Assembly: GCF_027594145.1 (NCBI RefSeq)
Contig: NZ_JAQFFK010000001.1
Span: forward strand, 558,001-622,000
Reading direction: 5' to 3'
Source of the DNA: Methanococcoides alaskense
GTDB lineage: Archaea > Halobacteriota > Methanosarcinia > Methanosarcinales > Methanosarcinaceae
DNA length: 64,000 bases
In this document: one piece after another, positions 2,803-60,910 of the stretch
How positions within the stretch are numbered: the stretch's first letter is position 1
How the letters are laid out: each line of letters opens with the position of its first letter
Notes under the pieces: model-generated
What the model was told of the DNA's origin: nothing
Seen by the model: the letters and a program-made list of their open reading frames with translations, nothing else
Database searches by the model: none
Made by a program: the position numbers and the translations under genes

Positions 2803-2834
2803 AGGAATGAGATCCAAAGGTCCATTCCTTTTTT
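2801..2834 (+). terminator. Hairpin with T tract after the TPR gene
   Basis: An inverted repeat (AAAGGAATG at 2801-2809, CATTCCTTT at 2823-2831) is followed by a run of T. It overlaps the stop codon of the TPR gene and lies about 100 bases from the end of the convergent lysA gene. Confidence 0.6.
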
Positions 2835-2939
2835 TTAAAGTAAAGAATACTTTTTCTGATAACTAAAATAAAAGAGAACAAAAAAGAAAAGGCATATTCT
2901 GAAAACTCAATTTCAGGATATGCATAAATACATCTAAGT

Positions 2940-4202: not shown

Positions 4203-4362
4203 GTCCTTTAAGTCTCCTTTATTGTTTCTGAAGCACTCTACTAACTTTAAAGTTAATACTATTTTCGATAAGGAAAATTGTTTCCGGTCAAGAGAGAAAG
4301 TAATAGGACAACATATGCAGGTGGTATAATGATTTTTATATGATGAAAGTTGGAATCTATCT

Positions 4363-5100
4363 ATGAAAGAGTTATTCAGCCTTCTGGAAAACTCCAGCTA
4401 TTGTGTTGTCCTTACAGGTGCAGGAGTATCAACATTTTCAGGTATACCGGACTTTCGGGGAAGTTCCGGAATATATAATGAATTTGATGCTGACCTCATT
4501 TTTTCGATCGAGCACTTCAAGAAAGAACCATCATATTTTTACGGACATTCAAAGGATCTCATCTATAATCTTGAACACAGACAACCAAGTATCGTACATA
4601 GGGTGCTCTCTGAACTTGAAGAGCGAGAGATAATAAAAACTATAATAACCCAAAATATTGACATGTTGCACCAGAAGGCTGGTTCAAAGAACGTCATTGA
4701 AGTCCATGGTTCTCCACAAGAGTATTCCTGTCTTGTCTGCGGAAAGAAATATACTTACGAATATATTGCAGTCCTGCTTAGAACAGAGGATGTCCCGACC
4801 TGTAATGAATGTGGAGGACTGATAAAGCCTGACATTATTTTCTATGGGGAAATGCTAAAGCAGGATGTAATTGAAAAAGCAATCGAAGAAAGTTCAAAGG
4901 CTGATATTCTATTGGTTCTCGGATCGACCCTTGTGGTTCAACCTGCTACCAGTTTGCCACTTTATACAATCGAAAATGGGGGAAACCTTGTTATTGTGAA
5001 CAATATGGAAACACCCCTTGATGGATATGCAATAGAGTTATACAAAGACCTTGGGGATGTGTTCATTTCTATTGCAGAACATTTCGATATTGACCTTTGA
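4363..5100 (+). CDS. Sir2-family NAD-dependent protein deacylase
   Basis: The 245-residue protein has all the sirtuin core motifs. These are the NAD-binding GAGVSTFSGIPDFRG (20-33), TQNID (96-100), the catalytic histidine in VHGS (H115), and a zinc ribbon with cysteine pairs C123/C126 and C147/C150. GSTLVVQPA (187-195) completes the Rossmann fold. Sirtuins remove acyl groups from lysines using NAD+; in archaea chromatin proteins and acetyl-CoA synthetase are known targets of relatives. The substrate here is not visible. It stands alone behind a 160-base divergent promoter region. Confidence 0.92.
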   Translation: MKELFSLLENSSYCVVLTGAGVSTFSGIPDFRGSSGIYNEFDADLIFSIEHFKKEPSYFYGHSKDLIYNLEHRQPSIVHRVLSELEEREIIKTIITQNIDMLHQKAGSKNVIEVHGSPQEYSCLVCGKKYTYEYIAVLLRTEDVPTCNECGGLIKPDIIFYGEMLKQDVIEKAIEESSKADILLVLGSTLVVQPATSLPLYTIENGGNLVIVNNMETPLDGYAIELYKDLGDVFISIAEHFDIDL

Positions 5101-5153: not shown

Positions 5154-6566
5154 ATGAATTTGATACCGGATTTTATTAAACGGAACGATCCATGTGCACA
5201 CGATCAGCTGGTACTATCGATGATCTTCATGTTCACGTTCCTTGCATTCCCTTTTATTGAGGTTAATGTTCTGATAATCATATTTCTGGTCATTCTTATA
5301 GCTTTCAGGTATCTTGAGATCAAACCTCATCTATTGAAAAGTCTTGATACGATGTTAAGGACGAGATCAACACAGGCATTTGTCGCTTCGATCCTAATAC
5401 TGTTCCTGGTAAGTTTCGTACTTGATTCCTTTGCCTGCAACTATCCGATATTCGTTATAGGACAGGTCGTTGCTATTTCAACTATAGGATTAGGTTCTGC
5501 AACGTTGGTTCGCTGCCATAAGGAATCAACATACATGTCCTCTATGAAGGGGGAATCTCCAGAAAGGGATCTCAAAAATGATGAGAAGATGATCAATTTC
5601 ATACCCTCAAGCATTACGATGCTTATAGTCGGAATAATCTTTGCATCACTGGCTGGTTTTTGGATAGTCTACTGGCAGGGTGCAAATGTATCCTATAATA
5701 TGATATTTTTCGTAGCAGTGATAGGTTCAATAACTGCCGGATTGTTCGAATCGATACCTTCAAAGATAGATAAGAACATATCTATTCCACTTGGCTCAGG
5801 CATGGCAATGTGGTTGTTCTTCTCATTTGGATATTCGATCCCAACGAACCAAATACTGTTCGCACTCCTCTTTTCAATGTTCCTCGGTTATCTTGCATAT
5901 TATGCAAAGATAGCTGACATCTCTGCTTCCCTTAGTGCAACCCTCATTGGCGTACTGATAATCGCATTTAGTAACATCTACTGGTTCATACTTCTTCTTA
6001 CATTTTTCATTCTTGGCGGTATGTTCACCAAATATAAATACAAGCTCAAGGAATCAATGGGCATCGCAGAAGGAAAGGGCGGGGTTCGAACATACGAAAA
6101 TGTGTTCAGTAATAGTACAGCCGCTCTCATACTTGCTATTGCATATGGTATCTATCCTCAGTACGGTGAACTGATCATATTTGCATATCTTGGCACAGTA
6201 GCAACCGCTGCTGGTGATACTCTTGCAAGTGAGATCGGTACGACGGCACAACAGCAGCCAAGGATGATAACAACTCTGAAACCCGTAAAAACTGGGGTCG
6301 ATGGCGGGGTGACATTACTTGGTGAGCTCTCATCGATCGGCGGGTCCGCAATAATCGCAATTTTCGCTATCATTTTCGGAATGGTTGACAGTTTTTATGC
6401 AGCCTTGATCATAACGGTAGCTGGAGGATTTTTGGGCACTAACATCGACAGTTTGCTTGGAGCAACACTGCAGAGTAGGGGTTTGTTGACCAATAGTGGT
6501 GTAAATTTCGTTGCTACTTTTGCAGGTGCAATTATTTCTGCAGGACTGTATGTGCTGTTTTTCTAA
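5154..6566 (+). CDS. DUF92 family polytopic membrane protein
   Basis: This is a 470-residue protein with about a dozen hydrophobic segments. The C-terminal half matches the DUF92 family, including the signature GDTLASEIG at about 354-362 and a G-V-D-G-G-V-T segment soon after. The plant member VTE6 is a phytyl-phosphate kinase, so prenyl-phosphate metabolism is a reasonable guess for the archaeal proteins, but this is inference. The N-terminal half (about 230 residues) is an additional membrane domain. It follows the sirtuin gene by 53 bases and could be cotranscribed. Confidence 0.8.
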   Translation: MNLIPDFIKRNDPCAHDQLVLSMIFMFTFLAFPFIEVNVLIIIFLVILIAFRYLEIKPHLLKSLDTMLRTRSTQAFVASILILFLVSFVLDSFACNYPIFVIGQVVAISTIGLGSATLVRCHKESTYMSSMKGESPERDLKNDEKMINFIPSSITMLIVGIIFASLAGFWIVYWQGANVSYNMIFFVAVIGSITAGLFESIPSKIDKNISIPLGSGMAMWLFFSFGYSIPTNQILFALLFSMFLGYLAYYAKIADISASLSATLIGVLIIAFSNIYWFILLLTFFILGGMFTKYKYKLKESMGIAEGKGGVRTYENVFSNSTAALILAIAYGIYPQYGELIIFAYLGTVATAAGDTLASEIGTTAQQQPRMITTLKPVKTGVDGGVTLLGELSSIGGSAIIAIFAIIFGMVDSFYAALIITVAGGFLGTNIDSLLGATLQSRGLLTNSGVNFVATFAGAIISAGLYVLFF

Positions 6567-7057: not shown

Positions 7058-7252
7058 TCATTATTTCCAAATTATACAATTGAATTGATCTTAGTAGTTA
7101 ATTAGTATTCAACTTCTTTTTTTGATCTCATCAATCTGCAACATTCAACTGTTATACATCGTTTTTAGCTTTCATTTTCTCTAGCAAAAGAAGATGTTGC
7201 TCTGCATTCGTTCAATTTGAATTGGACATATCATTAAAAAAAAGCTTTGACA
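7058..7252. other. AT-rich intergenic DNA upstream of surface cassette 1
   Basis: No gene is seen. The last 80 bases resemble the equivalent stretch before cassette copy 2 (about 13140-13219), so the ancestral duplication probably began in this area. Confidence 0.5.
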
Positions 7253-7287
7253 CTTACCATAGGTACTTACCACTGATACTTACTTTC
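7253..7287 (+). promoter_or_regulatory. 13-bp iteron-like repeats, cassette copy 1
   Basis: Two full 13-base units starting CTTACCA and a partial third (CTTACTTTC) lie head to tail. They end 25 bases before the TATA-like element at 7312. Copy 2 of the cassette has the same array with one extra unit at the same distance, so this is a likely regulator-binding site. Confidence 0.55.
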
Positions 7288-7311
7288 AATCCGAATCCTG
7301 TGTTCTTGGAA

Positions 7312-7320
7312 GTTTATATG
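7312..7320 (+). promoter_or_regulatory. TATA-like element, cassette copy 1
   Basis: GTTTATATG matches an archaeal TATA box. The same string stands before cassette copy 2 (13292) and about 40 bases before tRNA-Cys (39259). Transcription would start about 25 bases downstream, giving a leader of roughly 190 bases. Confidence 0.5.
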
Positions 7321-7417
7321 CTCTGCTGGACAACTTAGTATTGTAGTGGTACGGGTATGGTGCAGTTTGGCTATCGTAATTTGGTACGTTGCGAGAGTGT
7401 TTACTGTATTTGATTTT

Positions 7418-7466
7418 CCTCTCTTAGTGGAGGCTTAAAACTTTCACCAAGACATATAAAATGTCT
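7418..7466 (+). promoter_or_regulatory. Two leader hairpins of cassette mRNA, copy 1
   Basis: Hairpin I is CCTC/GAGG at 7418-7433. Hairpin II is AGACAT (7450-7455) paired with ATGTCT (7461-7466). In copy 2 hairpin II has two changed pairs that keep pairing (A-U to G-C, and A-U to G-U), which supports a real RNA structure. Confidence 0.5.
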
Positions 7467-7530
7467 AGGTAAACTGCATCCATTTTGACCGCTCTGAATG
7501 AAACGAAATCTCAAGTTGGAGGTAAAAGGA

Positions 7531-9750
7531 ATGCAAATTAAAACAATTCTTATTGTTGCAATGTTATGCCTTGCTATGTCTGGTATAGCAGTTACAGCAT
7601 GTGAAGAAGAAGATGACTGTTGCTGGGCAAAGCCATGTGGCACCCTAGTTGAACAATGTGACAAAGAAACTACTTTTGTACTTTATGACTCAGAAGCCCG
7701 GATTGTAAAGACACTCCACGGCTATGTATATGTTGACATGGAATACGACACAAATGGTCAGGGTCAGGAGATCATTACAGCTAATGATGTCCGTCTTTCC
7801 AACTGGCATACTAATTACGAGCCTAACACCAAGGTTATGCCAAACGACATGGACAACCTCGATGTTATTGAGACTGTATACGATGCTCCAATATCATACG
7901 TCGATGTCAATGACAACGGTATGTATGATCTTTATGATGGTGTAGTCTATGATCTTGATGATGATGGTCTTGTTTCTGTCGGTGACATACTCCAGACAGA
8001 TATCGCAGCAGTAGATGTCTATTCCCTTGAAGAGTTCGATGCCGGTGAATTTGTAGAGGCACAGGGAACATATGGAAATGCATGGGACAGAGTAAATGCT
8101 GCTCACCCAGCTAAGGGAATGGAGCTTTTCTCAATCGGTAACGGTGTAGCATCTGAACTCATGAAATGGGTAGACGCAGATGACAGCAACGACTGGAGCC
8201 TTGATGACAAACTCTACCTCATCCAGCCTCACTGTGTTGTAGAGGCAGCAGCAACAGCGGAAGTAACAACAGTAAAAGTAAGGGGAGCAGAAGGATTTGA
8301 TGAAGTAGTCACTATTGGTGACACCAGAGTCTACATACCTGAAGGCGATGAATGTATCCCTGAATGTGGTACAAAGGTCGTACAGGGTGACCACGATGCA
8401 ACCTACCTGTTAATGCAGAACCTCGACGCAAAGCTTGCATACTACACCTTTGGTGGCGAAACTGAATGGTATGTTGATATGGATGCAGACAATTTTGTGT
8501 CCTTCGGCGATATCAGACTCACAGAGGTCTCCACACACTATGGACCAAACACCAAGGTAAAGGTATGTGATGAATTCGATCTTGGACATGATCTTACATG
8601 GTCAGACCAGACTCTTGTCAGGTATGTTGAGACAGACGGTCTCGAGGGATACACTCTCGGCGATGCAGTCTATATTGACACTGACGACAATGATGTTGTA
8701 GATGCAGGTGATATCAGGCTGGTTGAAGTTGAATCTTTCCTTCCAGGATTCCCTAACGCATTCGTATACGATGCATGGGCAGTTGTAGAATCCAACGATG
8801 CTGATGTTGGAGATGAACTCAAAGGCATTGGTATAGGCGATACATACAACCCACTGAATTTCTACCTCGGATACATTGACTCTGACTGCACTGGAACCTG
8901 GACCTGTCCAGATAAACTATACATCCAGCAGATCACTGACGAGATAATGGATCTTGGTGTAACAGTAGGTGACCTCAGACTCTATGTACCTGTAAATGAT
9001 CCAAACAGTCCATTCTTTGGAATGGAAGACTGGCCAGAATGTGGTACCAAAGTAACATGTGCTGACATTGATGTTGAGTATGCAGTTACTCCTGTATTCA
9101 GCAACTATGATCTCATAATGTTCGTTGACAGGAACAATGACGGTGAATTCACCGAAGGCGTTGACCACGTGTACATTGATATGGATGAATCCGGCGATGT
9201 AACTCTCTATGATGTCAGACTTACTGATGTTAGCATCAAGGAAGCATTCTATCCAAACAACACTAAAGTCATGACACAGCACGATCTTGACCTCGGTGAC
9301 ACTTTGATGCCTTCAGACCTCTACGTTACAGTGTCTGATCTTGACCTCTTGGCTGTTGTGCCATACGTAGATATTGACGGCAATGACCCATGTGTTGACT
9401 TGCCATGCGAAAGCACACCATTCACAGTCAGTATGTTTGATAACGACTGCAGTGGTGACTGGACCTGTGTTGACGCTCTTTACCTGAGCATCAATGATCA
9501 GTTCTGTGAAGATGACTTCGCTGTGACCCACCAGGATATCAGACTCTTCATTCCACCAGAACTTATCTGCGAGAATGGTGAAGAACCTGATGATGAATGT
9601 GACTACCATGCATATGATGCAAACGAAGATGGTATAATCACCATTGGAGAGGTAAACACCACAATCGATGCATACCGCACAGCACAAACAGACATTGGAA
9701 CAGTAAATGAAATAATTGATCTATACCGCATGGGTGGATCATATTGTTAA
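7531..9750 (+). CDS. Secreted acidic Cys-rich protein with EF-hand-like loops, copy 1
   Basis: I do not recognise a named family. The start is the ATG at 7531, with GGAGGT 10 bases upstream; an earlier ATG at 7498 is lost in copy 2. The protein has 739 residues. A signal peptide (about 1-20) is followed by three diverged modules of about 225-240 residues, beginning with a CGT motif at residues 36, 279 and 504. Each module repeats a Y-x-D-x-D stretch, then a D-x-R-L, then a P-N-T-K-V-like string. Many D-x-N/D-x-D loops and a C-terminal canonical EF-hand loop (696-707, DANEDGIITIGE) suggest calcium binding. Cysteines are frequent, implying disulfides outside the cell. There is no membrane anchor. 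It is the first gene of a three-gene cassette. Confidence 0.85.
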   Translation: MQIKTILIVAMLCLAMSGIAVTACEEEDDCCWAKPCGTLVEQCDKETTFVLYDSEARIVKTLHGYVYVDMEYDTNGQGQEIITANDVRLSNWHTNYEPNTKVMPNDMDNLDVIETVYDAPISYVDVNDNGMYDLYDGVVYDLDDDGLVSVGDILQTDIAAVDVYSLEEFDAGEFVEAQGTYGNAWDRVNAAHPAKGMELFSIGNGVASELMKWVDADDSNDWSLDDKLYLIQPHCVVEAAATAEVTTVKVRGAEGFDEVVTIGDTRVYIPEGDECIPECGTKVVQGDHDATYLLMQNLDAKLAYYTFGGETEWYVDMDADNFVSFGDIRLTEVSTHYGPNTKVKVCDEFDLGHDLTWSDQTLVRYVETDGLEGYTLGDAVYIDTDDNDVVDAGDIRLVEVESFLPGFPNAFVYDAWAVVESNDADVGDELKGIGIGDTYNPLNFYLGYIDSDCTGTWTCPDKLYIQQITDEIMDLGVTVGDLRLYVPVNDPNSPFFGMEDWPECGTKVTCADIDVEYAVTPVFSNYDLIMFVDRNNDGEFTEGVDHVYIDMDESGDVTLYDVRLTDVSIKEAFYPNNTKVMTQHDLDLGDTLMPSDLYVTVSDLDLLAVVPYVDIDGNDPCVDLPCESTPFTVSMFDNDCSGDWTCVDALYLSINDQFCEDDFAVTHQDIRLFIPPELICENGEEPDDECDYHAYDANEDGIITIGEVNTTIDAYRTAQTDIGTVNEIIDLYRMGGSYC

Positions 9751-9771
9751 ATAAACTGTAAATTGAGTGTA

Positions 9772-9790
9772 GAGAGAGGAAATCTCTCTC
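9772..9790 (+). promoter_or_regulatory. Hairpin between genes A and B, copy 1
   Basis: A 7-bp stem GAGAGAG/CTCTCTC with a 5-base loop lies 24 bases before the start of the next gene. It is conserved in copy 2 and could stabilise or separate the two parts of the message. Confidence 0.45.
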
Positions 9791-9813
9791 ATTCGATTTA
9801 TGGGGGGTTCAAT

Positions 9814-11559
9814 ATGAAAATAGCAAAGACTATCAAATTGTTTGGGATCCTAAGTTTAGTGTGTCTGGTTACACTTTCGATGATCTCCGCAGCAGCAGCA
9901 AATCCTACTGTCTGCAGAGAACTTCCAATAAGTGCCAACCCTGGTGACACAATAACTGTGGAGCTGAACATGGAATTAGATGGCGCTGATAAGACCGTCA
10001 TCGAGGACAATGTACCTGCAGGATGGGTAGTAAGCAATCCATCTGATGGTGGATTTATTGTTGGCACTGATACAGTAACTTGGGCAAACACAGGTGCAGC
10101 ACCAGGTGACAACCAGCTAACCTATGATGTCACAATCCCTGGAGATGCAGCAGGAACATACGCCTTTGATGGAGTGTTCGATCTGGCAGTAGCAGCTCCT
10201 GGCCTCCAGGCAATTACCTGTGAAACACAGATGGATGTCGTCGAAGAACCAGTGCCAGGACCAGGACCAGGACCAGGACCAGCTGACGACCTAAATGTCT
10301 GCAGAGACCTTCCAACAAGTGCCAACCCAGGTGACACAATAACTGTGATTCTGGACCTTACATTAGTTGGTGCAGATAAGACTGTCATCGAGGACAATGT
10401 ACCTGCAGGATGGGTAGTAAGCAATCCATCTGATGGTGGGGCGGTCGAGGATACAAATACAGTAAACTGGATTTTCATCAACTCAGCACCAAGTGACAAC
10501 CAGTTAACCTACGATGTCACAATCCCTGGAGATGCAGCAGGAACATACAACTTTGATGGAGAGTTCGATCTGGCAGTAGCAGCTCCTGGCCTCCAGACAA
10601 TTGACTGTGACACTCAGATGAATGTCGAAGAAGCAGGACCAGGGCCAGTTGACGATCTAAATGTCTGCAGAGACCTTCCAACAAGTGCCAACCCAGGTGA
10701 CACAATAACTGTGCTTCTGGACCTTACATTAGTTGGTGCAGATAAGACCGTCATCGAGGACAATGTACCTGCAGGATGGTTAGTAAGCAATCCATCTGAT
10801 GGTGGGTCGATCGAGGACACAAATACAGTAAACTGGATTTTCATCAACTCAGCACCAGGTGTCACACAGTTAACCTATGATGTCACAATCCCTGGAGATG
10901 CAGCAGTAGGACCATACACCTTTGGTGGAGAGTTCGATCTGGCAGTAGCAGCTCCTGGACTCCAGACAATTACCTGTGACACTCAGATGAATGTAGTGGA
11001 AGTACCTGAAGAACCAGAATGTCCAGTAGCAGACTATGATCCTATTGTGATCGAGCCTTGCTGGAACTTCATGTCAGTGCCATTCGCACTGAACAACAGC
11101 AGTGTTGAATTTGTCCTTGCGGACATCAACTACAATAATCTGTTGTACTGGAACACTTCAGGCGCTATCTGGGAAATACCTACCGAATTCGAACCACTGA
11201 AAGCATACTGGATCGAGAGCAATGAGAGCGTTGATCAGCTGATCTCAAGCGAGATTCTTGAACCACTTACACCAGCTGTGCCACCTACCATGACAGTGTA
11301 TCCTGGATGGAATGCTATCGGTTACACCGATTCCATGGCTATCCTGCCAGCTGAACTGATGCTCGGTTCGATAGACGAATCATACATGGTTGTCATAGGT
11401 CCTTATGACTCAGCAAACGGTATGTATGAACAGATCGGACACAATGGTGAAACTGGAGTGATCTCTGGTATCCATGTAGGAACAGACATCTTCGATATGG
11501 GCCCATATGAGGGATTCTGGGTATATGTAACTCAGGAAGACACCATTGCAGGGTTCTAA
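9814..11559 (+). CDS. Secreted three-repeat beta-sandwich surface protein, copy 1
   Basis: The start at 9814 follows a GGGGGGT ribosome site. The protein has 581 residues. A signal peptide (about 1-29, ending SAAAA) is followed by three near-identical domains of about 105-115 residues. Each reads R-x-L-P-x-S-A-N-P-G-D-T-I, then VPAGW.VSNPSDGG, then LTYDVTIPGDAAG. They are joined by Pro-Gly linkers (GPGPGPGP). This pattern resembles Ig-like repeats in microbial surface proteins. The last 175 residues form a different domain starting W-N-F-M-S-V-P and containing P-G-W-N-A-I-G, as in other methanogen exported proteins. No membrane anchor is seen. It probably forms a stalk or spacer with its neighbours. 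Confidence 0.85.
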   Translation: MKIAKTIKLFGILSLVCLVTLSMISAAAANPTVCRELPISANPGDTITVELNMELDGADKTVIEDNVPAGWVVSNPSDGGFIVGTDTVTWANTGAAPGDNQLTYDVTIPGDAAGTYAFDGVFDLAVAAPGLQAITCETQMDVVEEPVPGPGPGPGPADDLNVCRDLPTSANPGDTITVILDLTLVGADKTVIEDNVPAGWVVSNPSDGGAVEDTNTVNWIFINSAPSDNQLTYDVTIPGDAAGTYNFDGEFDLAVAAPGLQTIDCDTQMNVEEAGPGPVDDLNVCRDLPTSANPGDTITVLLDLTLVGADKTVIEDNVPAGWLVSNPSDGGSIEDTNTVNWIFINSAPGVTQLTYDVTIPGDAAVGPYTFGGEFDLAVAAPGLQTITCDTQMNVVEVPEEPECPVADYDPIVIEPCWNFMSVPFALNNSSVEFVLADINYNNLLYWNTSGAIWEIPTEFEPLKAYWIESNESVDQLISSEILEPLTPAVPPTMTVYPGWNAIGYTDSMAILPAELMLGSIDESYMVVIGPYDSANGMYEQIGHNGETGVISGIHVGTDIFDMGPYEGFWVYVTQEDTIAGF

Positions 11560-11590
11560 TGGAGGTGTGATACAGAAAGTCGAAAAATAC

Positions 11591-11626
11591 AGGTGAGTTT
11601 TTAACTCGCCTAATTTATTTTTTATT
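11591..11626 (+). promoter_or_regulatory. Terminator-like hairpin between genes B and C, copy 1
   Basis: AGGTGAG/CTCGCCT (11591-11611, one G-U pair) is followed by a T-rich stretch and is identical in copy 2. It may reduce read-through into gene C. Confidence 0.5.
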
Positions 11627-11639
11627 AAAGGGTGATTCT

Positions 11640-12350
11640 ATGATCCAGAAAAAGAGCTTTACAAAATACACAATAATCTTACAGATATTCTTATTATTAT
11701 TTGCAATGGCAACGATCCCTGTAAGTGCTGCTTCTGAAGCTATTCCATCATTTCCGTTAAGTGTGGGAGGAGAAGTTACAATTGATGGAGAATTAGCACC
11801 TGTGGGAACTGAAATTACAGTCAAACTTGGGGAAAAGACAGTTGGTACAACCACCGTAGGATCTGAAGGAATATATGGCGATTTACCTACTAACAGGTTG
11901 TTAGTAACCAGTGAACCCGATGATTATGAGAATCTTGAGTTCTATGTGAATGGTGTCGAAACAGACCTTGTTGACCTCACAAATGCAGTTCCGGGAGCCA
12001 CAGTAACTACAATTCTTACATCATCAGCCCCTGCTGTAAGTGAAAAACCAGCTGATAAAACAGTTGCCGAATCCTCAAGTGGATCCTCAAGTTTTAGTTC
12101 ATCTCCATCATCAAGTTCATCATCAAGTTCATCATCATCATCATTGGATGATGCAGAAGTCCAGGATAATTCAGATGAGGAAAATACATTTGAGAGCATT
12201 GCTTTAGCAGGAGATGGGGCTGAAATTGAAACTACAAACGAGAATGTACCATCATCAGAAGCAGAGTCCTCTGCGCTTGTTACTGGGATATTCGGTTTGA
12301 TACTGGTTTCATTGGTAGGCGCAATTATCATTGTTAAGCGCAAAAAGTAA
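11640..12350 (+). CDS. Membrane-anchored surface protein with Ser-rich linker, copy 1
   Basis: The 236-residue protein has a signal peptide (about 1-31). Next comes a small beta domain with G-x-V-T-I-D-G and FYVNGVE motifs, seen in other methanogen surface proteins. A long Ser-rich linker of low complexity (about 142-175) and an acidic stretch follow. It ends in one membrane helix and a KRKK tail that should stay inside the cell. It is the only cassette product with an anchor, so it may tether the other two. A GGGTGA ribosome site precedes the ATG. Confidence 0.85.
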   Translation: MIQKKSFTKYTIILQIFLLLFAMATIPVSAASEAIPSFPLSVGGEVTIDGELAPVGTEITVKLGEKTVGTTTVGSEGIYGDLPTNRLLVTSEPDDYENLEFYVNGVETDLVDLTNAVPGATVTTILTSSAPAVSEKPADKTVAESSSGSSSFSSSPSSSSSSSSSSSSLDDAEVQDNSDEENTFESIALAGDGAEIETTNENVPSSEAESSALVTGIFGLILVSLVGAIIIVKRKK

Positions 12351-12405
12351 ATAAAAAATTTCATTTGAAAAAGAAAAGTAAAACAAATAAAGCTCCATAA
12401 AAGAA

Positions 12406-12445
12406 GGAAGATGATAGCGATTTTCTAAATCATGCTACATCTTCC
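12406..12445 (+). terminator. Long stem-loop ending cassette copy 1
   Basis: A 40-base near-perfect stem runs GGAAGAT...ATCTTCC outside, TAGC/GCTA and GATTT/AAATC inside, with a TCT loop. It is identical at 18357-18396 after copy 2. No long T run follows, so it could be a 3' processing or stability element as well as a terminator. Confidence 0.55.
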
Positions 12446-13219
12446 AAAAACCCGACAGATAAGATCTATGGAAATCCAACATACGGATCTTTACCTTCCC
12501 ATTTATAGCCTTTCAGGTGATTTTACATTTATTTCTTGTATTATCAGACACATATAGTAGTGACGTAACCAATTGTTGTTTTGCTTTTTTTTGCAGTAGG
12601 GTAGATAGTTCAAATCATCTATTTTTGTTAATGATGTAAAGTGAAATGTATGAATAGAATGAGTTTGTTGACTTTTTCATGTATCGTACATAATTTGAAT
12701 TGGAAACATTTGTTTTATCATGTAAAGATTATTTGTGTAATCAATTGTATAGTCATATTTATGGCTAAATTTTGAATTTCAAAGAAGTAGCTGTATAAGG
12801 ATCTTGTTATTTGAGTCTATGAGTTGTCCCACATCGTATTTTCGAATATAATAACGGAGTGATGTTTCACAAGGTATCTTATGATTGCGTTTATGCGGGT
12901 TTGAACTGAATTTAGTGAAATAATGAATTTGGTTTGGCACCTGACGTTTTTCTGTTATACATTTCTGCTATAATCGAACTAAACGTTCTTCAATCCATGG
13001 GAGATTCGATCTCAGATAGCTTCTTACCGAGATTTTCAAGATGCTTGTACTCTTTTTTAAAATCAAAATTAGTTAAGGGCATAATAGTAGCTTATTCAAA
13101 TATGTATAAACTTTGTATTTCCTGTGAGAATTTATCAGGATTCTCTTTAATAGACAAAGATGTTGTTCCGCCTCCATCCAATTGCAATTGGGATTCGTCA
13201 TACATAAAATTTTTGAACA
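12446..13219. other. Intergenic region between cassette copies
   Basis: About 770 AT-rich bases without a convincing gene. Two short open frames here lack a good ribosome site, have no family resemblance and overlap promoter DNA. The first half is similar to the DNA after copy 2 (about 18397-18900), and the last 80 bases resemble the DNA before copy 1. Confidence 0.6.
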
Positions 13220-13267
13220 CTTACCATGCGTACTTACCACGAGTACTTACCACGAGTACTTACTTTC
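13220..13267 (+). promoter_or_regulatory. 13-bp iteron-like repeats, cassette copy 2
   Basis: Three full units (CTTACCATGCGTA once, CTTACCACGAGTA twice) and a partial CTTACTTTC. The array ends 25 bases before the TATA-like element, exactly as in copy 1, but with one more unit. Confidence 0.6.
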
Positions 13268-13291
13268 CATCCGAATCCTGTGTTCTTTGAA

Positions 13292-13300
13292 GTTTATATG
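13292..13300 (+). promoter_or_regulatory. TATA-like element, cassette copy 2
   Basis: GTTTATATG in the same context as in copy 1. About 120 bases after it are almost unchanged between copies. Confidence 0.5.
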
Positions 13301-13401
13301 CTCTGCTGGACAACTTAGTATTGTAGTGGTACGGGTATGGTGCAGTTTGGCTATCGTAATTTGGTACGTTGCGAGAGTGTTTACTGTGTTTGATATATTA
13401 A

Positions 13402-13453
13402 CCTCCTTATTGGAGGATCAAAAAGACCTTTCACCAGGGCATATAATATGTCC
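13402..13453 (+). promoter_or_regulatory. Two leader hairpins of cassette mRNA, copy 2
   Basis: Hairpin I is CCTCC/GGAGG (13402-13416). Hairpin II pairs GGGCATA (13437-13443) with TATGTCC (13447-13453). Both occupy the positions of the copy 1 hairpins, with compensating base changes in II. Confidence 0.5.
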
Positions 13454-13517
13454 AGGTAAACTGCATCCATTTTGACCGCTCTGAACGAAACGAAATCTCA
13501 AGTTGGAGGTAAAAGGA

Positions 13518-15761
13518 ATGCAAATTAAAACAATTCTTATTGTTGCAATGTTATGCCTTGCTATGTCTGGTATAGCAATTGCACCAGGAACTGGCGAGGA
13601 AGAGCCAGCAGAAGATGTATGTTGCTGGGCAAAGCCATGTGGTACCCCAGTTGAACAATGTGACAAAGAAACTACTTTTGTACTTTATAATTCCGAGGCC
13701 CGGATTGTAAAGACACTCCATGGCTATGTATATGTTGACATGGAATTCGACACAAATGGTCAGGGTCAGGAGATCATTACAGCTAATGATGTCCGTCTTT
13801 CCAACTGGCATACAAATTACGAGCCTAACACCAAGGTTATGCCAAACGACATGGACAACCTCGATGTAATTGAGACTGTATACGATGCTCCAATATCATA
13901 CGTCGATGTGAATGACAACGGTATGTATGATCTTTATGATGGTGTAGTCTATGATCTTGATGATGATGGTTTTGTTTCTGTCGGTGACATACTACAGACA
14001 GATATCGCAGCAGTCGATGTCTACTCCCTTGAAGAGTTCGATGCCGGTGAATTTGTAGAGGCACAGGGAACATATGGAAATGCATGGGACAGAGTAAATG
14101 CTGCTCACCCAGCTAAGGGAATGGAGCTTTTCTCAATCGGTAACGGTGTAGCATCTGAACTCATGAAATGGGTAGACGCGGATGACAGCAACGACTGGAG
14201 CCTTGATGACAAACTCTACCTCATCCAGCCTCACTGTGTTGTAGAGGAAGCAGCACCAGTGAATGAAACAACAGTAAAAGTAAATAATCACTTTGGTGCA
14301 GAAGGATTTGATCAGTGCGTCACAATTGGTGACACCAGAGTCTACATCCCTGAAGATGATGAATGTATCCCAGAATGTGGTACAAAGGTCGTACAGGGTG
14401 ACCATGATGCAACCTACATGTTAATGCAGAACCTCGACGCAAAGCTTGCATTCTACAGCTTTGGTGGCGAAACTGAATGGTATGTTGATATGGATGCCGA
14501 CAATTTCGTATCCTTCGGTGATATCAGACTCACAGAAGTCTCCACACACTATGGACCAAACACCAAGGTAAAGGTATGTGATGAATTCGATCTTGGACAT
14601 GACCTTACATGGTCAGACCAGACTCTTGTCAGGTATGTTGAGACAGACGGTCTCGAGGGATACACTCTCGGCGACGCAGTCTACATTGACGTTGCCGACA
14701 ATGATGTTGTAGATGCAGGTGATATCAGGCTGGTTGAAGTTGAATCTTTCCTTCCAGGATTCCCTAACGCATTCGTATACGATGCATGGGCAGTTGTAGA
14801 ATCCAACGATGCTGATGTTGGAGATGAACTCAAAGGCATTGGTATAGGCGATACATACAACCCACTGAATTTCTACCTCGGATACATTGACTCTGACTGC
14901 ACTGGAACCTGGACCTGTCCAGATAAACTATACATCCAGCAGATCACTGACGAGATAATGGATCTTGGTGTAACAGTAGGTGACCTCAGACTCTATGTAC
15001 CTGTAAATGATCCAAACAGTCCATTCTTTGGAATGGAAGACTGGCCAGAATGTGGTACCAAAGTAACATGTGCTGACATTGATGTTGAGTATGCAGTTAC
15101 TCCTGTATTCAGCAACTATGATCTCATAATGTTCGTTGACAGGAACAATGACGGTGAATTCACCGAAGGCGTTGACCACGTGTACATTGATATGGATGAA
15201 TCCGGCGATGTAACTCTCTATGATGTCAGACTTACTGATGTTAGCATCAAGGAAGCATTCTATCCAAACAACACTAAAGTCATGACACAGCACGATCTTG
15301 ACCTCGGTGACACTTTGATGCCTTCAGACCTCTACGTTACAGTGTCTGATCTTGACCTCTTGGCTGTTGTGCCATACGTAGATATTGACGGCAATGACCC
15401 ATGTGTTGACTTGCCATGCGAAAGCACACCATTCACAGTCAGTATGTTTGATAACGACTGCAGTGGTGACTGGACCTGTGTTGACGCTCTTTACCTGAGC
15501 ATCAATGATCAGTTCTGTGAAGATGACTTCGCTGTGACCCACCAGGATATCAGACTCTTCATTCCACCAGAACTTATCTGCGAGAATGGTGAAGAACCTG
15601 ATGATGAATGTGACTACCATGCATATGATGCAAACGAAGATGGTATAATCACCATTGGAGAGGTAAACACCACAATCGATGCATACCGCACAGCACAAAC
15701 AGACATTGGAACAGTAAATGAAGTAATTGATCTATACCGTACAGGTGGATCATATTGTTAA
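13518..15761 (+). CDS. Secreted acidic Cys-rich protein with EF-hand-like loops, copy 2
   Basis: A 747-residue paralogue of the protein at 7531-9750, with the same three modules and C-terminal EF-hand loop. The ATG at 13518 has GGAGGT upstream. Differences cluster in two places: just after the signal peptide (PGTGEEEPAED replaces a shorter acidic string), and around residues 250-270 where a short insertion is present. From about 14710 to near the end the DNA looks identical to copy 1, which suggests recent duplication or gene conversion. The role is unknown; extracellular calcium-dependent assembly is my inference. Confidence 0.85.
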   Translation: MQIKTILIVAMLCLAMSGIAIAPGTGEEEPAEDVCCWAKPCGTPVEQCDKETTFVLYNSEARIVKTLHGYVYVDMEFDTNGQGQEIITANDVRLSNWHTNYEPNTKVMPNDMDNLDVIETVYDAPISYVDVNDNGMYDLYDGVVYDLDDDGFVSVGDILQTDIAAVDVYSLEEFDAGEFVEAQGTYGNAWDRVNAAHPAKGMELFSIGNGVASELMKWVDADDSNDWSLDDKLYLIQPHCVVEEAAPVNETTVKVNNHFGAEGFDQCVTIGDTRVYIPEDDECIPECGTKVVQGDHDATYMLMQNLDAKLAFYSFGGETEWYVDMDADNFVSFGDIRLTEVSTHYGPNTKVKVCDEFDLGHDLTWSDQTLVRYVETDGLEGYTLGDAVYIDVADNDVVDAGDIRLVEVESFLPGFPNAFVYDAWAVVESNDADVGDELKGIGIGDTYNPLNFYLGYIDSDCTGTWTCPDKLYIQQITDEIMDLGVTVGDLRLYVPVNDPNSPFFGMEDWPECGTKVTCADIDVEYAVTPVFSNYDLIMFVDRNNDGEFTEGVDHVYIDMDESGDVTLYDVRLTDVSIKEAFYPNNTKVMTQHDLDLGDTLMPSDLYVTVSDLDLLAVVPYVDIDGNDPCVDLPCESTPFTVSMFDNDCSGDWTCVDALYLSINDQFCEDDFAVTHQDIRLFIPPELICENGEEPDDECDYHAYDANEDGIITIGEVNTTIDAYRTAQTDIGTVNEVIDLYRTGGSYC

Positions 15762-15783
15762 ATAAAACTGTAAATTGAGTGTG

Positions 15784-15802
15784 GAGAGAGGAAATCTCTC
15801 TC
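15784..15802 (+). promoter_or_regulatory. Hairpin between genes A and B, copy 2
   Basis: GAGAGAG/CTCTCTC stem as in copy 1, with one extra TC in the 3' arm region. Confidence 0.45.
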
Positions 15803-15827
15803 TCATTCGATTTATGGGGGGTTCAAT

Positions 15828-17549
15828 ATGAAAATAGCAAAGACTATCAAATTGTTTGGGATCCTAAGTTTAATGTGTCTGGTTACACTTTCGATGATCT
15901 CCGCAGCAGCAGCAGATCCTAATGTCTGCAGGGAACTTCCAATAAGTGCCAACCCAGGTGACACAATAACTGTGGAGCTGAACATTATTGAATTAGATGG
16001 CGCTGATAAGACCGTCATCGAGGACAATGTACCTGCAGGATGGGTAGTAAGCAATCCATCTGATGGTGGATTTATTGTTGGCACTGATACAGTAACTTGG
16101 GCAAACACAGGTGCAGCACCAGGTGACAACCAGCTAACCTATGATGTCACAATCCCTGGAGATGCAGCAGGAACATACGCCTTTGATGGAGTGTTCGATC
16201 TGGCAGTAGCAGCTCCTGGCCTCCAGGCAATTACCTGTGACCTTCAGATGGATGTCGAAGCAGCACCAGGACCAGGACCGGGACCAGTTGACGATTTAAA
16301 TGTCTGCAGAGACCTTCCAACAAGTGCCAACCCAGGTGACACAATAACTGTGATTCTGGACCTTACATTAGTTGGTGCAGATAAGACTGTCATCGAGGAC
16401 AATGTACCTGCAGGATGGGTAGTAAGCAATCCATCTGATGGTGGGGCGGTCGAGGATACAAATACAGTAAACTGGATTTTCATCAACTCAGCACCAAGTG
16501 ACAACCAGTTAACCTACGATGTCACAATCCCTGGAGATGCAGCAGGAACATACAACTTTGATGGAGAGTTCGATCTGGCAGTAGCAGCTCCTGGCCTCCA
16601 GACAATTGACTGTGACACTCAGATGAATGTCGAAGAAGCAGGACCAGGACCAGTTGACGATCTAAATGTCTGCAGAGACCTTCCAACAAGTGCCAACCCA
16701 GGTGACACAATAACTGTGCTTCTGGACCTTACATTAGTTGGTGCAGATAAGACCGTCATCGAGGACAATGTACCTGCAGGATGGTTAGTAAGCAATCCAT
16801 CTGATGGTGGGGCAGTCGAGGACACAAATACAGTAAACTGGATTTTCATCAACTCAGCACCAGGTGTCACACAGTTAAGCTATGATGTCACAATCCCTGG
16901 AGCTGCAGCAATAGGAACATACACCTTTGATGGTGTGTTCGACCTTGCAGTAGCAGCTCCTGGACTCCAGGCAATTGACTGTGACACTCAGATGAATGTA
17001 GTGGAGGAAGTAGTTCCAGAACCAGAACTAGGTATTGTAATCGAGCCTAACTGGAACTTCATATCAGTGCCATTCGCATTGAACAACAGCAGTGTTGAAT
17101 TTGTCCTTGCGGATATCAACTACACTAATCTGATGTACTGGAACAATTCAGGCGGTATCTGGGAAATACCTACCGACTTCGAGCCACTGAAAGCATACTG
17201 GATCGAGAGCAACGAAAGCGCTGATCAGCTGATCTCAAGCGAACTTCTTGAACCAATTACGCCATCAGTGCCACCTGTAATGACAGTGTATCCAGGATGG
17301 AATGCTATCGGTTATACCGATTCCATAACTGTTCTGCCAGCTGAAATTGCACTTGGTTCGATAGACGAATCTTACACGCAGGTCAAAGGTCCTTATGACC
17401 CTGCAACCGCGACCTATGAACAGATAGGCCACAATGGTCAAACTGGAGTTATCGCTGGTGTCCATGTAGGAACAGACGTCTTCGATATGAGCCCATACGA
17501 GGGATTCTGGGTATTTGTAACTCAGGAAGATCTCCTTGCAGGGTTCTAA
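15828..17549 (+). CDS. Secreted three-repeat beta-sandwich surface protein, copy 2
   Basis: A 573-residue paralogue of 9814-11559 with the same signal peptide, three R-x-L-P repeat domains, Pro-Gly linkers and W-N-F-I-S-V-P C-terminal domain. It differs by a shorter first linker, a two-residue change after ELN in repeat 1, a shorter third linker that lacks the PECP cysteine, and WN preceded by Asn instead of Cys. The C-terminal domain has diverged most. Losing two cysteines in the linker and C-terminal domain suggests they form a disulfide in copy 1. Confidence 0.85.
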   Translation: MKIAKTIKLFGILSLMCLVTLSMISAAAADPNVCRELPISANPGDTITVELNIIELDGADKTVIEDNVPAGWVVSNPSDGGFIVGTDTVTWANTGAAPGDNQLTYDVTIPGDAAGTYAFDGVFDLAVAAPGLQAITCDLQMDVEAAPGPGPGPVDDLNVCRDLPTSANPGDTITVILDLTLVGADKTVIEDNVPAGWVVSNPSDGGAVEDTNTVNWIFINSAPSDNQLTYDVTIPGDAAGTYNFDGEFDLAVAAPGLQTIDCDTQMNVEEAGPGPVDDLNVCRDLPTSANPGDTITVLLDLTLVGADKTVIEDNVPAGWLVSNPSDGGAVEDTNTVNWIFINSAPGVTQLSYDVTIPGAAAIGTYTFDGVFDLAVAAPGLQAIDCDTQMNVVEEVVPEPELGIVIEPNWNFISVPFALNNSSVEFVLADINYTNLMYWNNSGGIWEIPTDFEPLKAYWIESNESADQLISSELLEPITPSVPPVMTVYPGWNAIGYTDSITVLPAEIALGSIDESYTQVKGPYDPATATYEQIGHNGQTGVIAGVHVGTDVFDMSPYEGFWVFVTQEDLLAGF

Positions 17550-17580
17550 TGGAGGTATGAGACCGAAAGTCGAAAAATAC

Positions 17581-17616
17581 AGGTGAGTTTTTAACTCGCC
17601 TAATTTATTTTTTATT
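17581..17616 (+). promoter_or_regulatory. Terminator-like hairpin between genes B and C, copy 2
   Basis: Identical to 11591-11626: AGGTGAG/CTCGCCT stem and a T-rich tail. Confidence 0.5.
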
Positions 17617-17629
17617 AAAGGGTGATTCT

Positions 17630-18301
17630 ATGATCCAGAAAAAGAGCTTTACAAAATACACAATAATCTTACAGATATTCTTATTATTATTTGCAATGGC
17701 AACGATTCCTGTAAGTGCTGCTTCTGAAGCTATTCCTTCATTTCCGTTAAGTGTGGGGGGAGAAGTTACAATTGATGGAGAATTAGCACCTGTGGGAACT
17801 GAAATTACAGTCAAACTTGGGGAAAAGACAGTTGGTACAACCACCGTAGGATCTGAAGGAATATATGGCGATTTACCTACTAACAGGTTGTTAATAACCA
17901 GTGAACCCGATGATTATGAGAATCTTAAGTTCTATGTGAATGCTGTCGAAACAGACCTTGTTGACCTCACAAGTGCAGTCCCGGGTGCCACAGTAACTAC
18001 AATCCTTGCATCATCAGTTCCTGTCGTACCTGAGACAACACCTGAGAAAAAAGCTTCATCCGGATCAATGGGCGGATACTCTGGTGATTCAGAAGTCCAG
18101 GATAACTCTGGAATTCAGGATGTCTCAGAGGAAAATTCAGTTGAGAGCATTGCTTTAGCAGGAGATGGGGCTGAAATTGAAACTACAAACGAGAATGTAC
18201 CGTCATCAGAAGCAGAGTCCTCTGCACTTGTTACTGGGATATTCGGTTTGATACTGGTTTCATTAGTAGGTGCAATTATCATTGTTAAACGCAAAAAGTA
18301 A
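17630..18301 (+). CDS. Membrane-anchored surface protein, copy 2
   Basis: A 223-residue paralogue of 11640-12350. The signal peptide, beta domain and C-terminal membrane helix with KRKK tail are nearly unchanged. The linker is different: a shorter Gly/Ser/Thr-rich segment (about 132-155) replaces the poly-Ser stretch. Only the length and make-up of the linker vary, as expected for a spacer between an anchor and an exposed domain. Confidence 0.85.
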   Translation: MIQKKSFTKYTIILQIFLLLFAMATIPVSAASEAIPSFPLSVGGEVTIDGELAPVGTEITVKLGEKTVGTTTVGSEGIYGDLPTNRLLITSEPDDYENLKFYVNAVETDLVDLTSAVPGATVTTILASSVPVVPETTPEKKASSGSMGGYSGDSEVQDNSGIQDVSEENSVESIALAGDGAEIETTNENVPSSEAESSALVTGIFGLILVSLVGAIIIVKRKK

Positions 18302-18356
18302 ATAAAAAATTTCATTTGAAAAAGAAAAGTAAAACAAATAAAGCTCCATATAGAAA

Positions 18357-18396
18357 GGAAGATGATAGCGATTTTCTAAATCATGCTACATCTTCC
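18357..18396 (+). terminator. Long stem-loop ending cassette copy 2
   Basis: Same 40-base stem-loop as at 12406-12445. Confidence 0.55.
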
Positions 18397-19002
18397 AAAA
18401 ACCCGACAGATAAGATCTATGGAAAATCCAACAAATTCAGATATTTACTTTTCCAGTTATAAGTTTACAGGCGAGTTTATTTTTACTTCTTGTATTATCA
18501 AATAAATGAATTAGTGAGAGGACCAATTTTTGGTTTGCTTTTTTTATAGATAAAGCAGATGGTGTAAACCTTTTATTTTGTCAATAATTTACAGTGAGAT
18601 ATATGAATCGAATGAGGTCGTTGACTTTTTCCTTGTCCTCGTAAATACTCTGAATTGGAAACATTTGTTTTACCATTAAGATCATTGGTGTAATTGATCG
18701 CAAAGTCACATGGTTGACAACAAGGTGTAGTGCATTTTTGGTGTATTCAGTAGTTTTTAATTTAAATCGAATAATAAGAGGTTTTACTTTTCGATTGGAA
18801 ATACATGCAGGGTGAATTCTATCACGCATTACTATGTCGTATGATACTGGTTATATGTGTTTAAAATGAAATTGGTGAGTCACAAAATTTTCTGATACGC
18901 ATTATGATGAGCATATATAAGCATTTCGTAACCTTTAAATAAAAGAAACACCCAGATTGCTTGGGGATAATTAAATCGAATTAAAGGTGTGGTGTGGGTA
19001 AA
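18397..19002. other. Intergenic region after cassette copy 2
   Basis: About 600 AT-rich bases. The first 500 are a diverged copy of 12446-12930. A TATA-like GCATATATAAGC near 18910-18921 could serve the winged-helix gene. No gene seen. Confidence 0.55.
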
Positions 19003-60438: not shown

Positions 60439-60885
60439 TCAGTCCCGTATGACCTTTATGAAGTACTCGTTGTGATGGTCTATATATCCGTCACTCATCA
60501 CTTTTATGGATATGTGGTCTTCCTGTTTTCCATCAGGCATTGACATATTGGTCAGTTTCATTCTCGCATTACCAAAACCATCTGTTATTGCGCCATCGGC
60601 AACAGTTCCGGAAGGGTCTCTTATCACCACATTGGAATTACCTATGCTTTTTCCTTCAAAGTCAGAGATGGTTATGTTCAGATAACCGGAATCTCCTGTA
60701 CCGTTGGTCAGTGAGATGCTATATGCATCAGCAGTTGCATACATTGGTCTTGGTGCCGTTGGTGTGCTCATTACGGCAGATACGATAACAGCAAAGCCTA
60801 TCATCCCTATTATCGTCAGCACTACCATTCGTATGGGCAAACCTATGGCTGCTTGCTCATTGTGAATAATGTTCTTACGATACAT
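60439..60885 (-). CDS. Archaeal pilin-like secreted protein
   Basis: The 148-residue protein has N-E-Q-A-A-I-G-L-P, then a hydrophobic helix (about 18-40) like the N-terminal domain of archaeal type IV pilins. A beta domain with a carboxypeptidase-regulatory-like pattern follows (N-V-V-I-R-D-P-S-G-T-V). The processing site is not certain. It is a paralogue of the next gene and in the same orientation with 25 bases between them, so they are probably one operon. They may be minor pilins or anchored surface proteins. Confidence 0.75.
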   Translation of the reverse strand: MYRKNIIHNEQAAIGLPIRMVVLTIIGMIGFAVIVSAVMSTPTAPRPMYATADAYSISLTNGTGDSGYLNITISDFEGKSIGNSNVVIRDPSGTVADGAITDGFGNARMKLTNMSMPDGKQEDHISIKVMSDGYIDHHNEYFIKVIRD

Positions 60886-60910
60886 AATTCCCGGAAATAA
60901 AGGGGTGAGA

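What the first reader, a model, noticed from the sequence alone, without database searches (positions are those of the whole stretch)
7253..18396. Duplicated three-gene extracellular cassette of unknown function
Two tandem copies encode the same trio. Gene A is an acidic Cys-rich protein with repeated calcium-type loops. Gene B is a three-repeat beta-sandwich protein. Gene C is a small protein with a membrane anchor and variable linker. Only C has an anchor, so A and B may assemble on it outside the cell. The arrangement recalls modular scaffold systems, but A, B and C do not match cohesin or standard dockerin patterns as I know them. Keeping the whole trio and its regulatory DNA through duplication argues that they work as one unit.
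Basis: partly seen in the sequence, partly recalled or inferred. Interest (0 to 1): 0.75.

Follow-up and report, generated by a model that had tools for sequence, protein, structure and literature searches.

The report
Duplicated archaeal surface scaffold trio
A methane-making archaeon carries two side-by-side copies of a three-gene set that probably docks a large secreted protein onto a three-socket scaffold held at the cell surface by a small membrane anchor, much like the bacterial cellulosome but with a socket and plug that are not the known cohesin and standard dockerin.

Summary
A 6 kb unit (7252-12741 and 13232-18694) is tandemly duplicated, 95% identical over most of it; both trios are intact, dN/dS below 1. 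The host is a Methanococcoides.

Best reading: a membrane-anchored scaffold. A ends in a one-loop dockerin variant ('ADOC'). B has three Ig-like repeats ('B1') and a C-terminal domain ('BCT'). C is a small domain on a membrane anchor. I infer that ADOC plugs into B1 and BCT into C.

Main evidence is paired module exchange. Two Methanohalophilus with A cores 82% identical carry either ADOC plus three B1, or a two-loop dockerin plus two cohesins; G025 shows the second state too. ADOC diverges with B1 (r 0.66), less with its own A core (0.29); BCT with C (0.81). G183 lacks BCT and C, and its B1 repeats have their own anchor.

Against: G110 keeps four ADOC proteins without B1; 9 of 27 unlinked ADOC cargos best match their own trio; ADOC's nearest solved sequences are EF-hands, not dockerins; binding was not tested. 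The A core has no structural match. A is not obligatory: B and C relatives occur widely without it.

The parts
7252..12741 (+). First copy of the duplicated unit, upstream DNA included
   Evidence: BLASTN copy against copy; the repeat finder
13232..18694 (+). Second copy of the duplicated unit
7531..9750 (+). Gene A copy 1 (alternative start 7498): signal peptide, three Cys/Asp-rich core domains, ADOC module
   Evidence: start chosen by GGAGGT before ATG
7618..9591 (+). A core, three repeated domains, copy 1
   Evidence: HMM scan; AlphaFold pLDDT 80.4, pTM 0.77; no match at E 0.001 in PDB or viral models
9601..9747 (+). ADOC: dockerin variant, one DxNxDGxIxxxE loop plus two helices, copy 1
   Evidence: (helices 705-716 and 722-733 of the 739-residue model)
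9814..11559 (+). Gene B copy 1: signal peptide, three B1 repeats, BCT domain, no membrane anchor
9907..10998 (+). Three B1 repeats (9907-10242, 10294-10626, 10663-10998), copy 1
   Evidence: Foldseek matches shown are mostly Ig-like proteins
11059..11544 (+). BCT domain, proposed plug for C, copy 1
11640..12350 (+). Gene C copy 1: signal peptide, C domain (11742-12005), Ser-rich linker, transmembrane anchor
13518..15761 (+). Gene A copy 2 (alternative start 13503); ADOC at 15612-15758
15828..17549 (+). Gene B copy 2: B1 repeats 15921-16256, 16299-16631, 16668-17003; BCT 17052-17537
17630..18301 (+). Gene C copy 2: C domain 17732-17995, different linker, same anchor

Best explanation
The trio is a surface display complex that works like a small cellulosome scaffold. 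C sits in the membrane. Its outer domain holds the BCT domain of B. B is the scaffold and offers three similar Ig-like sockets (B1). The ADOC plug at the end of A, probably ordered by calcium through its single EF-hand-type loop, binds a B1 socket, so one anchor could display up to three copies of A or of other ADOC-bearing proteins. ADOC:B1 is a second plug-and-socket pair used in the place that cohesin and dockerin occupy in relatives. Shown by computation: the gene order, the module architectures, the paired exchange of plug and socket types, and the co-divergence of ADOC with B1 and of BCT with C. Inferred: physical binding, calcium dependence, stoichiometry, and the purpose of the A core (adhesion or surface coat is my guess).
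For: (1) Paired swap: G110 and G107 have A cores 82% identical and a housekeeping ATPase 97% identical, but G110 has a two-loop dockerin with two cohesins (PF00963, 111.6 bits) and G107 has ADOC with three B1. G025 has the A core with Dockerin_1 (45.8 bits) and cohesins in B (39.2 bits). Of the 17 genomes where A core and an adjacent B are seen, 13 pair ADOC with B1, 2 pair a two-loop dockerin with cohesin, and 2 (G145, G147) pair a loop-less tail with DUF11-like B2 repeats; no A with ADOC was seen beside a cohesin B, and no A with a two-loop dockerin beside a B1 B (B is cut by a contig end in G146 and one G079 locus). (2) Reverse case: G105 and G108 have A cores only 46% identical, yet ADOC 76% and B1 84%. 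(3) ADOC-B1 distances correlate (r 0.66; partial on A core 0.62, permutation p 1e-4, 14 loci; partial on a housekeeping ATPase 0.57, p 4e-4, 13 genomes). The 90 core residues next to ADOC in A hardly correlate with it (0.21). Removing any one genus leaves partial r 0.52-0.78; one genome per genus gives 0.79. (4) BCT-C r 0.81, partial on A core 0.77, p 2e-4, 13 trios; in a 10-trio table the two highest of ten pairs are BCT-C and ADOC-B1. (5) Methanohalobium proteins carry two C domains and BCT in one chain (L100, L117); G183 lacks BCT and C at this locus and its B1 repeats run into their own membrane anchor (no C match in G183). (6) Outside the trio a one-ADOC gene lies next to a one-B1 surface protein and a two-ADOC gene next to a two-B1 surface protein (L167, L168). 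(7) All 18 genomes with strong B1 (70 bits or more, a cut-off set after seeing the scores) have an ADOC match at E 0.001, among 237. In Methanococcoides the 4 of 11 genomes with ADOC are the same 4 with strong B1, one of them (G096) without the trio. (8) ADOC occurs in 5 genomes with no cohesin match at E 0.001 (G079, G102, G103, G105, G108).
Against: No binding or complex model was made. ADOC and B1 are neighbours in DNA, as are BCT and C, so exchange of short DNA blocks could produce part of the correlation. G110 keeps four ADOC proteins but has no B1 match at all. Of 27 unlinked ADOC cargos in nine genomes with an ADOC trio, the genome's own trio ADOC is the best match for only 9, five of them near-identical paralogues. 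Of 26 genomes with ADOC, eight lack strong B1. ADOC is not recognised by Pfam Dockerin_1, and the 60 best solved sequences shown for its profile are nearly all EF-hand proteins, with no dockerin among them. The socket types are not fully separate: B of G102, G105, G107, G108 and also G110 carries one DUF11-like B2 module beside its B1 or cohesin modules, and B of G102 has a sub-cut-off cohesin score (20.2 bits against 24.1). The genome-level association is largely made by the trio itself.
Confidence: 0.68

Rival explanations
1. ADOC is only a calcium-stabilised end cap of A, and the B1 repeats are spacers or bind glycans or the S-layer. The co-divergence reflects exchange of short DNA blocks across the A-B and B-C gene borders, not binding.
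For: ADOC and B1 are adjacent in DNA, as are BCT and C. Unlinked ADOC cargos do not generally match their own trio (9 of 27). The ADOC profile finds EF-hand chains, not dockerins.
Against: The A core next to ADOC and BCT next to B1 are equally adjacent and correlate weakly (0.07 and 0.36; last 90 core residues 0.21). The type swaps seen are paired. One-and-one and two-and-two ADOC and B1 genes lie side by side outside the trio.
Confidence: 0.2
2. ADOC binds the canonical cohesins of the genome and B1 repeats have another role, so A would dock to cohesin proteins elsewhere.
For: G000 encodes five cohesin stretches, and ADOC is distantly dockerin-like (HHalign probability 78%).
Against: Five genomes with ADOC have no cohesin match at E 0.001. 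In the two trios whose B carries cohesin, A carries a two-loop dockerin and not ADOC.
Confidence: 0.07
3. An S-layer or adhesin array in which A, B and C merely co-locate in the cell wall, each attached on its own.
For: All three have signal peptides by sequence; related surface proteins are common in this family.
Against: A and B show no anchor of their own in the window, and where BCT and C are missing (G183) B has a membrane anchor instead.
Confidence: 0.05

Closest known systems
Cellulosome cohesin-dockerin scaffolds (type I and II; features recalled)
   Same: Repeated sockets on one scaffold, EF-hand-type plug at the end of cargo, separate anchoring protein, possible two-tier adaptors (cohesin plus ADOC in one protein).
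   Different: Socket is not a cohesin by Pfam in the window and scores HHalign probability 9%, E 0.0036 for one comparison; plug has one loop instead of two; no cellulose context seen; host is an archaeon.
Cohesin and dockerin proteins of ANME archaea (Chadwick 2022, PMC9012536; Timmers 2017, PMC5244752)
   Same: Related archaea; scaffoldin-like proteins with several cohesins are described in the first (passages read).
   Different: In the passages read, detection rests on existing domain models and no one-loop plug or Ig-like socket is mentioned.
Cohesin trios of genus g10 in this data (L123, L124, L127; probably Methanolobus, my inference)
   Same: Same BCT domain, same C gene; B has three cohesin stretches in L123 and L127 and two in L124 (145.5, 148 and 55.9 bits).
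   Different: Sockets are true cohesins and the first gene is an unrelated protein of about 1200 aa with a two-loop tail (PF00404 35.5 bits in L124, only 11.9 in L123; L127 by motif).
DUF11, BatD and bMG10 Ig-like domains
   Same: bMG10 is over its cut-off in both window B proteins (30.4 and 34.5 against 26.2); DUF11 and BatD in some relatives; the repeats are modelled as beta sandwiches like Ig domains.
   Different: B1 forms a high-scoring class tied to ADOC. Pfam scores on such repetitive proteins are inflated: unrelated families also pass cut-offs. No receptor role for these families is known to me (recalled).

Membership tests
Cohesin (PF00963) | B1 repeats score over the Pfam cut-off | tested here: not met
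   No cohesin hit in window B at E up to 1; sub-cut-off 20.2 bits in B of G102; HHalign B1 vs cohesin probability 9%, E 0.0036
Dockerin type I (PF00404) | A tail scores over the cut-off with two calcium loops | tested here: not met
   No hit for the window ADOC; one loop only in the sequence; the two PF00404 matches in G000 lie elsewhere
Dockerin-like in the wide sense | EF-hand-type calcium loop followed by helix, with a second helix in pseudo-repeat, at the cargo end | tested here: inconclusive
   Loop and two helices present (sequence; model); HHalign to dockerins 78%, E 1.7e-5 for one comparison; but the solved sequences found are EF-hand proteins, best E 5.6e-6, no dockerin among the 60 shown of 298
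Cellulosome-like scaffold | Several sockets on one scaffold and a separate cell-surface anchor | tested here: met
   Three B1 in both window copies. Of 13 other ADOC-B1 loci: three in 7, four in 1, two in L111 (broken frame) and L112, one in L116 (shortened), cut by a contig end in L108 and L115. In the window only C has an anchor (sequence)
Cellulosome-like scaffold | Plug binds socket | not testable with these tools
   Only indirect evidence: paired swaps and co-divergence
Archaeosortase substrates (PGF-CTERM) | C ends in a sorting signal over the model cut-off | tested here: not met
   Window C has none (LPXTG_anchor 13.8-13.9 against 15.9); the C relative of G025 has PGF_CTERM, 30 bits against 24.5

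The most novel reading that the evidence does not exclude
Methanosarcinales use a second plug-and-socket code, ADOC with Ig-like B1, independent of cohesin and dockerin, in a two-tier surface scaffold with cohesin-ADOC adaptors. Plug and socket are exchanged together as a cassette between near-identical species, while BCT and C form a general, more constant anchor. In Methanococcoides some plugs carry an in-frame TAG, so docking of that cargo could depend on pyrrolysine read-through.
Probability: 0.5. Interest if true: 0.78.

Novelty: new variant of a known kind. Interest (0 to 1): 0.68.

Why it matters
Cohesin and dockerin are the best-known code for assembling protein complexes outside a cell. 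A pair with a socket of another family, swapped in and out of the same gene slot, would show that the slot matters more than the fold, would explain how many otherwise unassigned secreted proteins of methanogens are held at the surface, and would give a new orthogonal connector for protein engineering. The natural swaps between nearly identical Methanohalophilus make the idea directly testable.

Tried and rejected
Pfam, NCBIfam and PDB sequence searches of the window proteins gave no family over cut-off for A or C; B passes the cut-off of bMG10 only (PDB was tried for A and B of copy 1 only). Sub-cut-off hits such as FG-GAP and beta-lactamase models in B I take for chance in repeats. Foldseek of the A model against PDB and against viral models found nothing at E 0.001, so the A core fold stays unassigned. 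Foldseek of the B model has small E-values but low whole-model TM-scores (best row 0.16). The model is good for the repeats and poor for BCT (pLDDT under 50 for 487-581), so BCT was not interpreted structurally. A test that unlinked cargo plugs match their own trio's plug gave a mixed result (9 of 27; modules under 40 bits left out) and is counted against. The genome-level association was recomputed without the 13 genomes holding the ADOC-B1 trio: 5 of 5 strong-B1 genomes still have ADOC among 224 (p 2.9e-7). This is not corrected for ancestry; in G025, G032 and G036 the two genes are neighbours, and in G076 the B gene is cut by the contig end and may belong to a trio. Dropped rows: the distance tests used only repeats over 105 bits and longer than 85 residues (so the B2 modules, one repeat of L111 and one of L115 are out); one search left out the second G079 locus; the 10-trio table used one best repeat per genome. 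The L163 relative labelled Fermentibacteria lies on a 3.1 kb contig whose neighbour gene looks archaeal to me, so I took it as likely misbinned. The two-loop dockerin of L106 (G110) is assigned by its loops and its likeness to the tail of L124 (35.5 bits); alone it scores 15.5 bits, below the cut-off.
Full report
WHAT IS THERE. The window is G000:C1:558001-622000. Genomes placed in the same genus include contigs named Methanococcoides. Two tandem copies of an A-B-C trio are present, with about 250-280 bases of DNA upstream of A included in the repeat. dN/dS between copies is 0.245 for A, 0.56 for B and 0.41 for C, so both seem to be in use. In M. seepicolus LLY the same order, B-C followed by another A, is seen on two short contigs.

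DOMAINS. A: signal peptide, three related core domains of roughly 180-250 residues rich in Asp and Cys, then a 49-residue module (ADOC). B: signal peptide, three B1 repeats of about 112 residues, then the BCT domain. C: signal peptide, one domain of about 90 residues, a linker that differs between the copies, and a transmembrane end (signal peptides and membrane end read from the sequence). AlphaFold gives A pLDDT 80.4 and pTM 0.77, with two helices in ADOC, and no match at E 0.001 to solved or viral structures. For B the repeats are modelled as beta sandwiches and BCT is not confident; the 50 Foldseek rows shown are mostly Ig-like and complement-type proteins, with no cohesin among them.

DISTRIBUTION. 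A matches 21 of 185 genomes of the order, two of them (G096, G076) only through ADOC. C matches 57 and some part of B 66 of 111 genomes of the family. The A core is thus seen in 19 genomes. B follows directly in 17; in the other two (G103, G184) the contig ends there. C follows in 14 of the 17. Of the other three, G146 is cut by the contig end; G079 has one locus cut by a contig end (a B end with C lies on another contig, C200) and one with a shortened B and no C; G183 is treated below. Fourteen further loci without the A core (L118-L130 from genus g10, L131 from g5), picked from the matches and so no random sample, all have BCT next to C. In them BCT is preceded by cohesins in L123, L124 and L127 (Pfam) and, by the coordinates, in L125, L126, L128, L129 and L130; it is fused to a CbiX domain in L118 and L119 (Pfam), with L120 and L121 alike at their start; L122 was not inspected beyond its length; L131 has repeats of another kind. 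So BCT plus C is a wider pair and what lies upstream varies. The name Methanolobus for g10 is my inference; no call names it.

PAIRED EXCHANGE. Seventeen genomes have A core plus adjacent B. ADOC goes with B1 in 13, a two-loop dockerin with cohesin in 2 (G110, G025), and a loop-less tail with DUF11-like B2 repeats in 2 (G145, G147). One B2 module also lies before BCT in B of G102, G105, G107, G108 and G110, so socket types are not wholly exclusive. Five of the eight Methanohalophilus genomes searched have the trio, and they are most telling. G105, G107, G108 and G110 share 97-99% of a housekeeping ATPase, 81-95% of BCT and 80-88% of C. G107 and G110 share 82% of the A core, yet one has ADOC and B1 and the other dockerin and cohesin. 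G105 and G108 share only 46% of the A core, yet 76% of ADOC and 84% of B1. The plug follows the socket, not its own protein.

CO-DIVERGENCE. Over 14 loci ADOC-B1 r is 0.66, ADOC-core 0.29, B1-core 0.33, partial ADOC-B1 given core 0.62, p 1e-4. Given a species distance (13 genomes) the partial is 0.57, p 4e-4, while core-B1 (0.11, p 0.15) and ADOC-core (0.14, p 0.15) are not significant. Leaving out one genus at a time gives partials of 0.52-0.78, between-genus pairs alone r 0.53, and one genome per genus a partial of 0.79. For BCT-C in 13 trios r is 0.81, partial on the A core 0.77, p 2e-4; in a 10-trio table ADOC-B1 is 0.56, BCT-C 0.80 and the other eight pairs lie between 0.03 and 0.44. Both strong pairs are also DNA neighbours, but so are core-ADOC (0.07) and B1-BCT (0.36), so nearness alone does not explain them. 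Exchange of blocks cut exactly at the domain borders could still contribute.

FUSIONS AND LOSSES. In Methanohalobium one protein joins two C domains, a repeat and BCT (L100, L117). In G183 BCT and C are both missing at the locus and the B1 repeats end in their own membrane anchor; the C search found nothing in G183. Beside the trio system there are B1 surface proteins with PGF-pre-PGF domains (L142, L167, L182); in L167 a one-ADOC gene precedes a one-B1 protein and in L168 a two-ADOC gene precedes a two-B1 protein. Five proteins in four genomes join a cohesin to an ADOC (L141, L183, two in L179, one in L114; cohesins, ADOC), which would link the two codes as adaptors. Other ADOC cargos carry NosD-type helices (L143, L151, L181), CAP (L173) and rhodanese (L176) domains or TIGR04279 (L173).

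GENOME LEVEL. Among 237 genomes of the class, 26 have ADOC at E 0.001 and 18 have B1 at 70 bits or more, all 18 within the 26 (cut-off chosen after seeing the scores; G103 has a partial match of 65.7 bits at a contig end). Most of this is the trio itself. Without the 13 genomes with the ADOC-B1 trio, 5 of 5 still agree among 224, not corrected for ancestry. In Methanococcoides 4 of 11 genomes have ADOC and the same 4 have strong B1; G096 has both without the trio.

WHAT SPEAKS AGAINST. G110 has four ADOC proteins and no B1 match. Unlinked cargos match their own trio best in 9 of 27 cases, five of which are near-identical copies. ADOC is not a Dockerin_1 by Pfam, and its profile finds EF-hand proteins rather than dockerins among the 60 solved sequences shown. 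Of 26 genomes with ADOC, eight lack strong B1, five of these with ADOC scores under 40 bits. B of G102 scores 20.2 bits for Cohesin, under the cut-off. No physical interaction was tested.

KNOWN AND NEW. I read passages of Chadwick 2022 (PMC9012536) and Timmers 2017 (PMC5244752), which report many cohesin and dockerin domains in ANME archaea found with existing models. Peer 2009 was not held. Searches for dockerin with cohesin and Methanosarcina, DUF11, dockerin-like and archaea, Methanococcoides, Methanohalophilus, PGF-CTERM, non-cohesin, atypical calcium-binding loop and Archaeoglobus, and for Methanococcoides surface proteins (listings only, apart from the two papers above and passages of PMC3984160) showed nothing that I recognised as ADOC, B1 or the BCT-C pair. 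I file the system as a new variant of cohesin-dockerin-like scaffolds: it works like one by architecture, and is not a member by sequence for the socket.

Noticed in passing
L143 (G000:C5:131000-143000) 5285-6385 and L145 (G096) 2068-4875: Two different ADOC cargo proteins in two Methanococcoides genomes have an in-frame TAG at the same ADOC position with an identical 33-nt surrounding; read on, the module is complete and ends in the usual ...YC. PylS is encoded in both genomes, so pyrrolysine read-through is possible.
   Followed up: partly
L118, L119 (genus g10): Secreted CbiX chelatase-like domains are fused to BCT and followed by C: an apparently surface-held tetrapyrrole or metal enzyme using the same anchor (Pfam; L120 and L121 start alike).
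   Followed up: no
L169 (G032) 468-2504: An order-level relative carries B1, a cohesin and a two-loop dockerin-like tail (by sequence) in one protein directly downstream of an ADOC gene.
   Followed up: no
L102, L103, L104, L105, L106, L107, L109: Methanohalophilus and Methanosalsum have a second, shorter C-like gene of 163-179 aa after C, without the C-tail match.
   Followed up: no
L176 (G110) 2776-3195: A rhodanese domain carries an ADOC tail, an unusual cargo for a surface scaffold.
   Followed up: no
window 60439-61393, minus strand: Two adjacent short ORFs with a hydrophobic N-terminus and an Ig-like looking remainder, possibly pilin-like (sequence; my impression only).
   Followed up: no
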